45,310 nt of DNA from Nitrospiria bacterium (GTDB lineage: Bacteria; Nitrospirota; UBA9217): positions 1-45,310 of the forward strand of contig CAKKRC010000048.1 in NCBI GenBank assembly GCA_919902495.1. Direction: 5' to 3'. Each line of letters opens with the position of its first letter. The stretch's first letter is position 1. The notes under the pieces were generated by a model. It was not told the DNA's origin. It was given only the letters and a program-made list of their open reading frames with translations, and searched no databases. A program made the position numbers and the translations under genes. Below, piece by piece: positions 1 to 4,559 of the stretch.

Positions 1-136
1 ATTCAGAGGCAATGAACCTGCAGTTAAACACCGTTTCAAGGTTCTTTTCGATGAGAGCCTGGATTTCCTTTTCCTGATTGATATTCGTCGGTCTCGTCAA
101 CGATAATTTAGTTCCAGCAATCTGAAATAGCGGCAT
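1..136 (-). CDS. COG3586/DUF5655-type protein, N-terminal fragment
   Basis: The first 45 residues of a protein that runs off the left edge of the window. It starts MPLFQIAGTKLSLTRPTN and continues with a helix rich in charged residues (QEKEIQALIEKNLETVF) and NCRFIASE. This arrangement is typical of proteins annotated as predicted transport protein/DUF5655 (COG3586), where the following part is a PD-(D/E)XK-like nuclease fold; that part lies outside the window. A good ribosome binding site (CGGAGGAC) sits about 7 bases before the ATG. It follows the DisA-like gene by 77 bp on the same strand, so it is probably the third gene of the restriction-modification operon. The assignment rests on a short N-terminus and is moderate. 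Confidence 0.55.
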   Translation of the reverse strand, partial: MPLFQIAGTKLSLTRPTNINQEKEIQALIEKNLETVFNCRFIASE

Positions 137-213
137 GTTTTTGTCCTCCGTACATCATTAAACCGAAATAATCTCTACGATAAAGGCACAGCATCAAGAA
201 ATTAAACGTGTCA

Positions 214-1410
214 CTATGAATCCAGAAAAAAGGTATTTAAACAATCTGGCCAAATTACAATACTATTTTCATGCCGCATCATCGTGCGAACAGGTCCGTC
301 CTCAGATATAACAAACGCAACTGCTCCTGAGCATTCTGCAACAAAATCTATGGCAGAGCTATGTCTCGTCCCAAAACGTGACGTATCATAGGTTTCGAAA
401 GCTTCTGCCGGGATAGTATTGTCGATTATACTTTTGTTCACTGTCCCGCTCCACTTATTGTGAATCGCTATTTTACTTCGGAAGCGAAGGGGCTTTAATT
501 CATCATCAATAATCAATGCCCCATCAACGCAGCTTAGATTTGCAAGCAAATCAATATATTCGGCCAGCATTTTTTTACTATCTTCTCTCAACGCGAAAGT
601 AGAGGCCCTGTCGATCAATTCTCTTATAAGCGTACTCCCACATTGTTTACCTGTAACCACAGTCCCCTCGCGAAGACAACCAAAAGCCTTCTCACGGATT
701 GCAGAGGGAGCCCATAAAATAGTGCCGCCGCGACCCTTTTCAGCGGCAGTTGAATATAGTCGTCGAAGGCAGTCTCGATAAAACAACCAATAATGTGGTT
801 TGTAGAGATCGTATTTCTCATGTTGTGAAATAATACTAATGATGTGACCGCAGAAGATGGACGAACCCCAGGGATCGAGGTTCGTCGGAACAAATTCTCC
901 CCCTTCAAATCTTCCGACGACAGAATCGCCATAGGCGATAGCGACGCAACCAGGTGCTCGAACACTCAAAGTCAAAGCCTGCGGGCGTACACGACTTCCC
1001 TGCCCCTGACTTAGGCTCGACCCTCCCTTGCCGTAGAAAATCAACCCCATGAGTGCATATTGGCATTTTTTCCCCCGCGTCACTAAGAGCGCGGATAGTT
1101 CTTGATCGAACGCAGGTGCTAATTTTGCTAAGTTCTCGGGGGTAAATGTAATCTCGCTGTTGAAAACCATGAGGTCGAGTCTCGGCATTTTCTCGCTCAT
1201 AGTCGCAACTGTTTCTTCAGCCATAAAAACAACACGGGTTTGAGATGAGACTCCTTCTTCTTTCTTGATGCTAGCTAAATAGCTAATCTCAAGGAGAGCC
1301 TTTAAATCGATGCTATCCGGCAAAGCATCGACAATCTCGCGCTGATTGCGCAATTTACCATAAACGACCCATTCAGAACGGATATCTTCAATGATTTTAT
1401 CTTCAATCAT
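214..1410 (-). CDS. DisA-like diadenylate cyclase-fold protein (DACNV-like?)
   Basis: A 398-residue protein with a C-terminal DisA_N/diadenylate cyclase-like domain. Two hallmark regions are visible: VDGALIID near residue 295 (the DGA motif) and FGTRHSSAIDF near residue 348, followed by GAVAFVISEDGPV. Known cyclases (DisA, CdaA) join two ATP into c-di-AMP using DGA and RHR motifs; here the second motif reads RHS. The first 250 residues are not a known membrane or DisA helical region and resemble the uncharacterised N-terminal sensor regions (DACNV type) described in bacterial conflict systems. A reading frame continues upstream to a TTG at 1452, but ATG 1410 with GGTGA six bases before it is the better start. 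It lies directly downstream of the restriction-modification gene and is AT-richer than the core genes. Activity and product are inferred, not shown. Confidence 0.7.
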   Translation of the reverse strand: MIEDKIIEDIRSEWVVYGKLRNQREIVDALPDSIDLKALLEISYLASIKKEEGVSSQTRVVFMAEETVATMSEKMPRLDLMVFNSEITFTPENLAKLAPAFDQELSALLVTRGKKCQYALMGLIFYGKGGSSLSQGQGSRVRPQALTLSVRAPGCVAIAYGDSVVGRFEGGEFVPTNLDPWGSSIFCGHIISIISQHEKYDLYKPHYWLFYRDCLRRLYSTAAEKGRGGTILWAPSAIREKAFGCLREGTVVTGKQCGSTLIRELIDRASTFALREDSKKMLAEYIDLLANLSCVDGALIIDDELKPLRFRSKIAIHNKWSGTVNKSIIDNTIPAEAFETYDTSRFGTRHSSAIDFVAECSGAVAFVISEDGPVRTMMRHENSIVIWPDCLNTFFLDS

Positions 1411-1458
1411 ACAATTCACCGTTGCCCACCGGGCCGATGAAGCCACTCGCAATTATTC

Positions 1459-4400
1459 CTAACATTCTTTCTGGACCAACCTACACTCTGCTTCTGTTAC
1501 CCCATACAACCCATACACAATCCCATCTATCTTTTCATCCATCACCGCGATCTCGCGTTCGATCTTTTCGCGCTCGGCGGACGGAGGAAGGGCGGCTTTC
1601 TTTTTGTGAAGGTCGAGCATGCGCTCAACGATGAAGATGAGTTTTTCGTGGATGGCTTTTTCGGACGGGCTGCTGAAGTCAATAGTGCGGATGGGAAGCT
1701 TTTCTAGATATTGCGTAAAAAATCTAAGATATCCTCCTCGATAGGCAGCGAAGGAGTTTCTATAGAAGAATGTCATCAACGCTGAATTCAGAATGCCAAG
1801 CAGATATCTATCATCACTGATAATAAGGTAAGTTGTATTTGCTGAAAATAATCCGTTGCTCTGGTCGAGTGTAAAATTGCCTCTTACGGAAATATCCGGC
1901 AGCATTATCTTGGGCTTATCAAACTCTTCATAATAATCAATTGAATCCTGAATCTCATGCCATTTATACGATCCGGGTTTTCGTCCGGGCCATTCGCCAC
2001 CCTTCCAATCTGAGGGTTTTGGTATGAGCTTCTTCTTGAATGGCAATAAATGCTCTTCAATTGCAGGATACTTTTTTATATCAATACCACGTCGTGTAAA
2101 GATTAAATAGCTTTTGATGTTTGGCTCTTCATAGCGCTTGATGTCACGGCCAAATAAAAAGGGCTTTATCAATTCTGCGCTGTTCCTATCTTTTTTAATG
2201 AGTTCTTTTCTGGTGTCAGCATCTATGATAAAAGCTTCATTTAGACCGGTTAATACGCCTCTGTACATCTGTCCCTTTACATATTCGCCGAGTAGAACTC
2301 CAACTCCTTGCAATCTGGTCAGCAGCGACTGAGCCTGTTCATTCACCAATGACCACCCTTCATCGCTAAGGGCGGTTTTATTAACAGTGTATGAATTTTC
2401 GCTCACATAGGCGGCGAGGTCGTTGAAGTCGAGCGTCTTTACCTGTGTAGCGGAGAACTTGTTTGCTGCGGCACCTTTTCGCATACGCAGGATGCACGGA
2501 TATGTTGTCGCAGTCTCGAAGACTTGAAGATCACCGAAGTCGGTAATTTCTTCGATGCGCTGCTTCTTCATCCATTTACGAAGTGGCTCGCCGTAGTTAG
2601 CGCGCATCCACTTGTTGGCAACGATATAGCTGAAGAGACCGTCTTTCCTAAGCAGTGATACGCCCTTCTCGATGAAATAGGCATAGAGATCGGCGGTCCC
2701 ATGATAGACCTCATAATGCTGCTGGAAGTAGTCTTTGAAATCGCCGAGCAACTCTTGTCTTACATACGGCGGATTGCCGATGACCGCGTCGAAGCCGCCG
2801 TTCTCGATGATTTCGCCGAATCCGGCAGTCTTCGAAGTCCAATCAAAGGGATTGATCTTGTCCTTCGCAGCATCGTCCAGGGCGAAGAACCCCCCTTGCA
2901 TTCCCCCCTTGCTAAGGGGGGACAAAGAGGGGTCAACAATGTCATACCCGATCAGGCTGTTGCCGCACTTGATGTTATTGCCGAGGGCCGGGAGAAGATG
3001 CTGCTTCCGTGGCAATAAGCCGCGCTCGCCTTCGAGGGCCTTGAGATACAGGCTCATCATCGTTACTTCGACCGCCTGGGCGTCGATGTCCACACCGAAG
3101 ATGTTGTTCCTGAGGATCTTCGCTTTCTCGCGCAGGGGCAGGGCGAATTCCTCTGCATTGAAGGGCATGTAAATGTTAAGGCTGAGGGTTGTTGCGTCCT
3201 TGGGATGGTCGCGGTAGTAACTGAGGTGATAGTCGATGAGATATTGATACGCCCCGAGAAGGAACGAACCGGAGCCGCAAGCGGGATCGAGTATCTTTAT
3301 CTTCTCGATCTGCTTCGGCGTCTTTCCCTCGACCAGTTTGCCCACGGTGTTCTTGACGATATAATCGACAATGAACTTTGGCGTGTAATAGACGCCGCCC
3401 GCCTTCTTTATCTCCGGCTTTTCCTCAACCTTCACCCGCTGGGGCGTGACACGGATGGTGCTGCCGAGATACCGTTCGTAGATGCTGCCCAACAGCTCCA
3501 CGGCAATCACGTCGAAACGGTACCGGCAATCAGGAAAATAGAGCTTATTGATGATGTCAGCTAATAGCTCAGAATCAACTTCCACGCTCTCGCAGGCATG
3601 GGGTTTGAAGATGTCGCCATTCAGATCGTCGTTCACCTCGCGGAACAGGTCAACAAGGGCGGGCATCATGGACTTGCGCTTGCCCTCTGCCCTCCATTGC
3701 GCCACGATCTCCCAAAGCTCCCGCTCCGGCCTGATCTTCCGGTCTTCGGCAATGCGGATGAAGATGATGCGGTCGAGCAGCTTCTGGACCACGTCGTTCA
3801 GCACATGGACATCGAGGTCATGATTCAGCTTGTTGATGTCCTTGGCCAGGTCCGTGCGCCACCCGGTCAGGTCTTCGAGGAATGACTTGTCAGGAGGTAT
3901 CCTGAGCCGTTTGCTCTTCGGGTCCCGGGGCAGCAGGGCTTCGAGCGACCCCTGTTCGACCCGCTCTTTTGAAAGCTCCCACAGCTTCTCAATATTGGTG
4001 AGATAATCGGCGTACTTGAGATCGTAGAGCAGGCCTTCCTTCGGATATTTCGGATTCGGTTTGAGGGATGCATCGAAGAGCTTGAATTCCTCAAAGTCCG
4101 TCAGGATGACGAAGGATACCTGCTGCGTGTTCCACGCATAGTCCTTCGCCTGGAGGATATGGTTCACATCGTCGAGCGCCACTGAGGGGGCCTTGGCCTC
4201 GACGAAGAACTTGGTATTGCCGTTTATGCGGAAGCTGTAGTCAGGCCGGAGGTTGGAGGTGACGCGCTTTTCACCTGTGGGAAGAATCTCGATGACGACA
4301 TCGCGCTTATCCGGCGGTTTGTGGGAATTGTTCTCGATGTCCCAGCCGAGAGCAGCGAAGAAGGGGTTCAGGAAGTCGATCCGTACCTGGGCCTCGGGGT

Positions 4401-4491
4401 AGCCCTTCTGGAGATAATGGTTTTTGTCCTGTTCGAACTTCCGGACCAAGGACTGAACGTCTTGCTTGAATGAATGCAGATCAGCCACCAA
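1459..4491 (-). CDS. Eco57I-like type IIG restriction-modification enzyme
   Basis: A single-chain restriction endonuclease and adenine-N6 methyltransferase of 1010 residues. The N-terminal 120 residues carry a PD-(D/E)XK nuclease signature (RPDYSFRINGN then FFVEAKAPS). The central methyltransferase has motif I DPACGSGSFLLGAY near residue 400 and motif IV NPPYVRQE near residue 572. The last 320 residues match a TaqI-like target-recognition domain (FGRDIKRYE, then Y-rich segments ending in a coiled helix). The start is GTG, preceded by GGGGGC at six bases. A 17-bp-spaced promoter lies upstream. It should methylate and cleave a specific DNA site. Two oddities: an in-frame GC-rich palindrome encoding SPLSKGGMQGG (about residues 520-534), and a visible drop in GC content for the recognition domain. 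Family assignment is confident; the recognition site is unknown. Confidence 0.9.
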   Translation of the reverse strand: MVADLHSFKQDVQSLVRKFEQDKNHYLQKGYPEAQVRIDFLNPFFAALGWDIENNSHKPPDKRDVVIEILPTGEKRVTSNLRPDYSFRINGNTKFFVEAKAPSVALDDVNHILQAKDYAWNTQQVSFVILTDFEEFKLFDASLKPNPKYPKEGLLYDLKYADYLTNIEKLWELSKERVEQGSLEALLPRDPKSKRLRIPPDKSFLEDLTGWRTDLAKDINKLNHDLDVHVLNDVVQKLLDRIIFIRIAEDRKIRPERELWEIVAQWRAEGKRKSMMPALVDLFREVNDDLNGDIFKPHACESVEVDSELLADIINKLYFPDCRYRFDVIAVELLGSIYERYLGSTIRVTPQRVKVEEKPEIKKAGGVYYTPKFIVDYIVKNTVGKLVEGKTPKQIEKIKILDPACGSGSFLLGAYQYLIDYHLSYYRDHPKDATTLSLNIYMPFNAEEFALPLREKAKILRNNIFGVDIDAQAVEVTMMSLYLKALEGERGLLPRKQHLLPALGNNIKCGNSLIGYDIVDPSLSPLSKGGMQGGFFALDDAAKDKINPFDWTSKTAGFGEIIENGGFDAVIGNPPYVRQELLGDFKDYFQQHYEVYHGTADLYAYFIEKGVSLLRKDGLFSYIVANKWMRANYGEPLRKWMKKQRIEEITDFGDLQVFETATTYPCILRMRKGAAANKFSATQVKTLDFNDLAAYVSENSYTVNKTALSDEGWSLVNEQAQSLLTRLQGVGVLLGEYVKGQMYRGVLTGLNEAFIIDADTRKELIKKDRNSAELIKPFLFGRDIKRYEEPNIKSYLIFTRRGIDIKKYPAIEEHLLPFKKKLIPKPSDWKGGEWPGRKPGSYKWHEIQDSIDYYEEFDKPKIMLPDISVRGNFTLDQSNGLFSANTTYLIISDDRYLLGILNSALMTFFYRNSFAAYRGGYLRFFTQYLEKLPIRTIDFSSPSEKAIHEKLIFIVERMLDLHKKKAALPPSAEREKIEREIAVMDEKIDGIVYGLYGVTEAECRLVQKEC
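2890..2933. repeat. in-frame palindromic element inside the methyltransferase
   Basis: A run of C-rich and G-rich blocks (CCCCCCTTGCATTCCCCC, then CTAAGGGGGGAC and AGAGGGG) that can fold into a hairpin. In the gene's frame it encodes a SPLSKGG..GG peptide between the methyltransferase motif I and motif IV segments. Peptides of the type PLSKGGxGG are a known sign of small dispersed palindromes landing in coding regions of several environmental lineages. The surrounding protein is intact, so the insert is tolerated. Confidence 0.6.
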
Positions 4492-4530: not shown

Positions 4531-4559
4531 AGAATATCATTCAGGCCAGCTTATGACAA
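4531..4559 (-). promoter_or_regulatory. sigma70-like promoter of the restriction operon
   Basis: On the minus strand TTGTCA (4559-4554) and TATTCT (4536-4531) are separated by exactly 17 bp and lie about 40 bp upstream of the GTG start at 4491. The -35 box has one mismatch from consensus and the -10 box two. No other promoter of similar quality was seen between this gene and the DisA-like gene, so the three genes probably share it. Confidence 0.5.

What the first reader, a model, noticed from the sequence alone, without database searches (positions are those of the whole stretch)
214..4491. Candidate new defence operon: type IIG restriction enzyme, DisA-fold protein and COG3586-type gene
Three genes in a row on one strand share one good promoter (4531-4559). 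The DisA-fold gene starts 49 bp after the restriction gene stops, and a COG3586-type gene follows by 77 bp. Restriction-modification and cyclic-nucleotide signalling are established anti-phage strategies, but their direct linkage through a diadenylate cyclase-fold protein is not a system I can name. The AT-rich composition against GC-rich neighbours indicates acquisition.
Basis: partly seen in the sequence, partly recalled or inferred. Interest (0 to 1): 0.75.

Follow-up and report, generated by a model that had tools for sequence, protein, structure and literature searches.

The report
Restriction locus with inserted diadenylate-cyclase gene
A bacterial DNA-restriction gene and an associated putative nuclease gene flank a gene for a probable signalling-molecule synthase, but comparison with many other genomes indicates that the synthase is an exchangeable passenger rather than part of a new three-gene defence system.

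Summary
The three genes are real and lie on one strand. 1459-4491 is an intact-looking type IIG enzyme. 217-1410 is a DACNV-DAC protein of diadenylate-cyclase fold. 1-136 is the first 45 codons of a COG3586/DUF5655 putative PD-(D/E)XK nuclease, cut by the contig end.

Among 77 distinct other DACNV loci in five bacterial groups, none has a relative of this type IIG enzyme nearby. None of the type IIG homologues with visible downstream sequence (about a dozen) has a DAC gene. The decisive locus is in a relative of the same family (G003:C91). There the same type IIG (about 60%) and the same COG3586 gene (40/45 residues) lie in the same order on one strand. Where the window has the DAC gene, it has three unrelated genes. 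DNA similarity stops at window base 155 and resumes at 1493, so the DAC segment behaves as a replaceable module.

COG3586-restriction linkage is real but already known (7 of 11 plasmid loci).

Best reading: a mobile restriction locus with variable cargo, here a divergent diadenylate cyclase. A DAC was recently shown to be needed for defence in a CBASS-like system, so a defence role is possible but unproven.

The parts
1459..4491 (-). Type IIG restriction enzyme-methyltransferase, 1010 aa: N-terminal PD-ExK-like region (RPDYSFRINGNTKFFVEAK), N6-adenine methylase motifs DPACGSGSF and NPPYVRQE, TaqI-like specificity domain (residues 776-934), conserved C-terminal tail
   Evidence: PADLOC PDLC03604 E 4.8e-193 over 8-1004; Pfam Eco57I, TaqI_C, HSDR_N; motifs read in the translation
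214..1410 (-). DACNV-DAC protein, 398 aa, predicted diadenylate cyclase; DGA (residues 296-298) and GTRHS (347-351) motifs; the ORF is open upstream to TTG 1452
   Evidence: Pfam DACNV E 5.2e-17 and weak DAC; fold matches DisA, CdaA and DacM; alignment with 18 homologues
1..136 (-). 5' 45 codons of a COG3586/DUF5655 putative PD-(D/E)XK endonuclease gene, cut by the contig end
   Evidence: PDC-S18 E 2.6e-10; 40/45 identical to the full-length homologue in G003; remainder not found in the assembly
4531..4559 (-). Promoter-like site TTGTCA-17-TATTCT with TG before the second hexamer, upstream of the IIG gene
   Evidence: Consensus scan; not clearly above chance for the region
156..1492 (-). Segment without DNA similarity to the G003 locus: contains the whole DAC gene; similarity on both sides (1-155 at 87.7%, 1493-1700 at 83.7%)
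   Evidence: blastn against L229

Best explanation
This is a mobile restriction locus with exchangeable cargo. The type IIG enzyme alone would methylate host sites and cut unmodified DNA (inferred from family and intact motifs). The COG3586/DUF5655 gene is a predicted PD-(D/E)XK nuclease of a family often beside restriction genes; its exact role is unknown, most likely an accessory nuclease. The gene between them encodes a DACNV sensor domain joined to a diadenylate-cyclase domain, which probably makes c-di-AMP or a related nucleotide in response to an unknown signal. It sits in a slot that holds unrelated genes in a relative, so it is probably co-transcribed by position but not needed for restriction. 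Shown: identities, fold, order, replaceability in one relative, lack of recurrence. Inferred: enzymatic activities, co-transcription, any defence role of the DAC.
For: In G003:C91 the same IIG and COG3586 genes lie in the same order with TPR, 114-aa and Bro-N genes in place of the DAC. Similarity breaks at window 155 and 1493. 0 of 77 distinct other DACNV loci have a relative of this IIG. 91 neighbours of window-clade DACNV genes are mostly housekeeping. IIG homologues are found in 64 of 346 phylum genomes; those with visible downstream sequence carry varied genes and no DAC, including other recurrent ones. COG3586 genes lie by restriction or methylase genes in 7 of 11 plasmid loci.
Against: The replaceability rests on one relative. 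The window DAC has no relative above about 32% identity in the genomes searched, so a close family linked to this IIG could exist unsampled. The 48-bp spacing would fit an operon. The COG3586 gene and all that follows it are cut off by the contig end.
Confidence: 0.66

Rival explanations
1. The DAC is an independent defence signalling unit (sensor plus nucleotide synthase) that moves between defence islands and here joined a restriction locus; it would act with an effector that is cut off or located elsewhere.
For: A diadenylate cyclase is needed for defence by DS-2, a phospholipase-cGAS-DAC system, as shown by catalytic mutants (PMC13092281). Some other DACNV genes lie by defence genes: L136 (HEC-02 pair 140 bp downstream), L158 (type II CBASS genes on the other strand), L017 (Tn7-like element with a C5-methylase). 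The window DAC is on a long branch (1.74), as expected of a gene under changed selection.
Against: Only 3 of 77 other loci show this, by a partial survey without a background rate. Its own clade sits among housekeeping genes. No effector is linked in the visible sequence.
Confidence: 0.18
2. The three genes are a new defence system in which restriction damage or phage infection triggers the DAC, and its nucleotide product activates the COG3586 nuclease.
For: Same strand, gaps of 48 and 77 bp; intact IIG motifs; DAC motifs DGA and GTRH retained; COG3586 is a putative nuclease (PMC1189080).
Against: Found once. IIG and COG3586 occur without a DAC. Most COG3586 genes by restriction systems lie by type I systems without a DAC. 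No IIG homologue read has a DAC.
Confidence: 0.07
3. The DAC is an ordinary chromosomal c-di-AMP or osmotic-stress gene that happens to lie by a restriction island, with no functional tie.
For: Homologues in its clade are chromosomal and beside metabolic or transport genes.
Against: It lies between two restriction-associated genes. No DACNV gene is present in the two other genomes of the same genus or eleven others of the family, so it is not a core gene here.
Confidence: 0.09

Closest known systems
Type IIG restriction enzymes (PADLOC PDLC03604; Eco57I methylase with TaqI-like specificity domain)
   Same: Single-chain nuclease, methylase and specificity architecture over the full length; usually a solitary gene
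   Different: Followed by a DAC gene here; no other locus examined has that
DACNV-DAC proteins (Pfam PF21751; a DAC-CBASS association is credited to Galperin 2023, J Bacteriol, not held, cited through PMC13092281)
   Same: Domain order, DGA and GTRH motifs, about 400 aa
   Different: Only about 32% identity to the nearest relative; long branch; third RHR position is Ser; restriction context
DefensePredictor system DS-2 (phospholipase, cGAS, DAC; PMC13092281)
   Same: A diadenylate-cyclase protein in a defence locus
   Different: No CD-NTase or phospholipase in the window; partner is a restriction enzyme
COG3586/DUF5655 (PADLOC candidate PDC-S18) beside restriction-modification systems
   Same: COG3586 gene downstream of restriction genes; association already noted in PMC1189080
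   Different: Partner is type IIG rather than the usual type I; gene incomplete here

Membership tests
Type IIG restriction enzyme | One chain with nuclease, N6-adenine methylase and specificity domains | tested here: met
   Full-length PADLOC match; HSDR_N, Eco57I and TaqI_C domains
Type IIG restriction enzyme | Site-specific cutting and methylation | not testable with these tools
   Needs enzyme assay or methylation sequencing
Diadenylate cyclase (DAC) | DAC fold | tested here: met
   All 24 PDB fold matches at E<=0.001 are diadenylate cyclases; Pfam DAC is below cut-off
Diadenylate cyclase (DAC) | DGA and RHR active-site motifs | tested here: inconclusive
   DGA and GTRH kept, last Arg of RHR is Ser (Asn in most relatives). 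RHR to AAA abolishes activity in M. tuberculosis DacA (PMC3328451); effect of the single change not known
Diadenylate cyclase (DAC) | Makes c-di-AMP | not testable with these tools
   Needs biochemistry
DACNV-containing proteins | DACNV domain above the Pfam cut-off | tested here: met
   62.3 bits against 27
CBASS / DS-2-like system | CD-NTase and effector beside the DAC | tested here: not met
   Neighbours are a type IIG enzyme, a COG3586 fragment and a TauE transporter; sequence beyond base 1 not available
COG3586/DUF5655 family | PD-(D/E)XK-like N-terminus and DUF5655 C-terminus | tested here: inconclusive
   Only the first 45 codons present; the 40/45 identical homologue has DUF5655 and a RIDTLALSEDNNPVIIEYKK motif
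Conserved IIG-DAC-COG3586 system | Recurrent linkage in unrelated genomes | tested here: not met
   0 of 77 distinct other DACNV loci have this IIG; no IIG locus with visible downstream sequence has a DAC

The most novel reading that the evidence does not exclude
A type IIG restriction locus has taken up a diadenylate cyclase as a backup signalling arm, so that failed restriction raises a cyclic nucleotide which activates the neighbouring COG3586 nuclease or another effector cut off by the contig end.
Probability: 0.07. Interest if true: 0.75.

Novelty: new member of a known kind. Interest (0 to 1): 0.3.

Why it matters
A real coupling of restriction to cyclic-dinucleotide signalling would be new. 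The comparison indicates instead that the slot downstream of these type IIG genes takes varied cargo. That makes the slot, rather than this trio, the thing to mine for defence genes, and it adds a divergent DACNV cyclase in a defence context to test.

Tried and rejected
Single-sequence scans for the DAC in genome contigs, viral contigs and phages found nothing; plasmids gave one Hymenobacter hit. Alignment-based scans of viral contigs with A1, A2 and A3 found nothing. A promoter and terminator scan was not informative. Synteny of the TauE neighbour in relatives did not show an empty insertion site: flanks differ everywhere. The Hymenobacter patatin beside a DACNV gene was considered as a CBASS phospholipase, but it carries an Omp85 domain and only weak PADLOC matches. 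mad3, mad8, PDC-S04, SoFic, TIR and PycC matches among 91 neighbours were not traced to individual genes. Galperin 2023 was not available to read. No background rate of defence genes near random genes was computed.

Full report
What is there. The window is the whole of contig C48 of a 110-contig genome, so base 1 is an assembly end. On the minus strand, 1459-4491 encodes a 1010-aa protein that matches a PADLOC type IIG profile end to end (E 4.8e-193). Its Pfam domains are HSDR_N, Eco57I and TaqI_C, and intact-looking motifs RPDY...EAK, DPACGSG and NPPY can be read in the translation. Forty-eight bases after its stop, ATG 1410 begins a 398-aa protein with DACNV (above cut-off) and DAC (below cut-off) domains. 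Seventy-seven bases after that gene, ATG 136 begins a COG3586-type protein cut after 45 codons. Those codons match PDC-S18 and a full-length DUF5655 protein at 40/45 residues. The rest of that gene is not in the assembly.

The DAC protein. A model built from the window and 18 homologues (pLDDT 81.4) matched only diadenylate cyclases (DisA, CdaA/DacA, DacM) among 24 PDB hits at E<=0.001. DGA and GTRH are kept; the last residue of the RHR motif is Ser, and Asn in most relatives. In M. tuberculosis DacA the RHR-to-AAA mutant is dead (PMC3328451), but the effect of this single change is unknown, so activity is inferred. A tree of 78 DACNV proteins puts the window in an 11-row clade (95/83) with Desulfobacterota and Myxococcota sequences on a long branch of 1.74; the best identity is 32%. 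The placement of long branches is uncertain.

Is the linkage recurrent? DACNV genes were gathered from Nitrospirota, Desulfobacterota, Myxococcota, Magnetococcales and Bacteroidota. The window phylum is called Nitrospirota by inference: two of its genomes hold the same loci as records titled Nitrospirae. Eighty-two other loci were read; after removal of copies of the same locus, 77 are distinct. In none is a neighbour a relative of the window type IIG (blastp); some of these loci are short because their contigs end nearby. Ninety-one neighbours from the window's own clade gave mostly housekeeping families, such as sulphite reductase, MFS, ZnuABC and ETF-QO, and few PADLOC matches, none of them to restriction families. 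Defence genes near DACNV were seen in three loci: a HEC-02 pair in L136, a type II CBASS set on the opposite strand in L158, and a Tn7-like element with a C5-methylase in L017. This survey was partial and has no background rate.

The type IIG side. Relatives occur in 64 of 346 phylum genomes. Twenty loci were read. About eight are cut by contig ends on the downstream side; the rest carry varied genes after the IIG and no DAC. Two small unknown families recur there: 67% identical between L226 and L231, and 93% between L228 and L231.

The decisive comparison. In G003:C91, from the same family, the IIG (about 60% identical) and a COG3586 gene lie on one strand in the same order as in the window. 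Between them are a TPR protein, a 114-aa protein and a Bro-N protein instead of the DAC. DNA similarity covers window 1-155 at 87.7% and resumes at 1493 inside the IIG 3' end. The Bro-N protein is itself a PADLOC candidate, PDC-S13. The DAC segment therefore behaves as a replaceable module, on the evidence of one relative.

The COG3586 side. Eleven plasmid loci with DUF5655 homologues were read. Six lie beside or inside restriction operons, mostly type I, one lies beside a methyltransferase, and four have no adjacent restriction or methylase gene. A 2005 survey already calls COG3586 a putative PD-(D/E)XK endonuclease family and reports one near a type I system (PMC1189080). That part of the linkage is known.

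Interpretation. The parsimonious reading is a mobile restriction locus with variable cargo, here a divergent DACNV cyclase. DefensePredictor showed that a DAC is required for defence in DS-2, a CBASS-like system (PMC13092281), so a defence role for this one is plausible but rests on analogy.

Composition and promoter. GC is 45.1% in the DAC, 46.3% in the 3' half of the IIG, 54.9% in its 5' half and 55.6% in TauE, so the whole block is not uniformly foreign. The promoter-like site is real but of a quality expected by chance several times in 5 kb.

Noticed in passing
G000:C51:25185-28010 (L224 7186-10047) against window 1459-4491: The genome holds a second type IIG gene nearly identical to the window's over most of residues 51-650 but diverged in the specificity domain (about 700-950), as expected of specificity-domain exchange; it is cut by the contig end.
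   Followed up: partly
L226 4222-5283; L231 4811-5881; L228 2287-3201; L231 3857-4768: Two families without Pfam or PADLOC matches recur directly downstream of type IIG genes in other genomes of the phylum (67% and 93% identity between copies); candidate cargo or partner genes.
   Followed up: partly
L136 4881-7788: A DACNV gene lies 140 bp upstream of a HEC-02 ATPase-nuclease candidate defence pair on the same strand.
   Followed up: partly
L158 5657-10975: A DACNV gene in a Myxococcota genome lies next to type II CBASS genes (JAB, E1-E2, cyclase) on the opposite strand.
   Followed up: partly
L017 1961-15570 (same contig as L035): A Tn7-like element (TnsA, TnsB, TniB-like ATPase) borders a DACNV gene, a sigma-like protein, a C5-methylase and an Mrr-like protein.
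   Followed up: partly
G964, G991, G1029 and other genomes of the Magnetococcales group: Many carry three DACNV genes, several in open frames of 600-700 aa that suggest extra domains.
   Followed up: no
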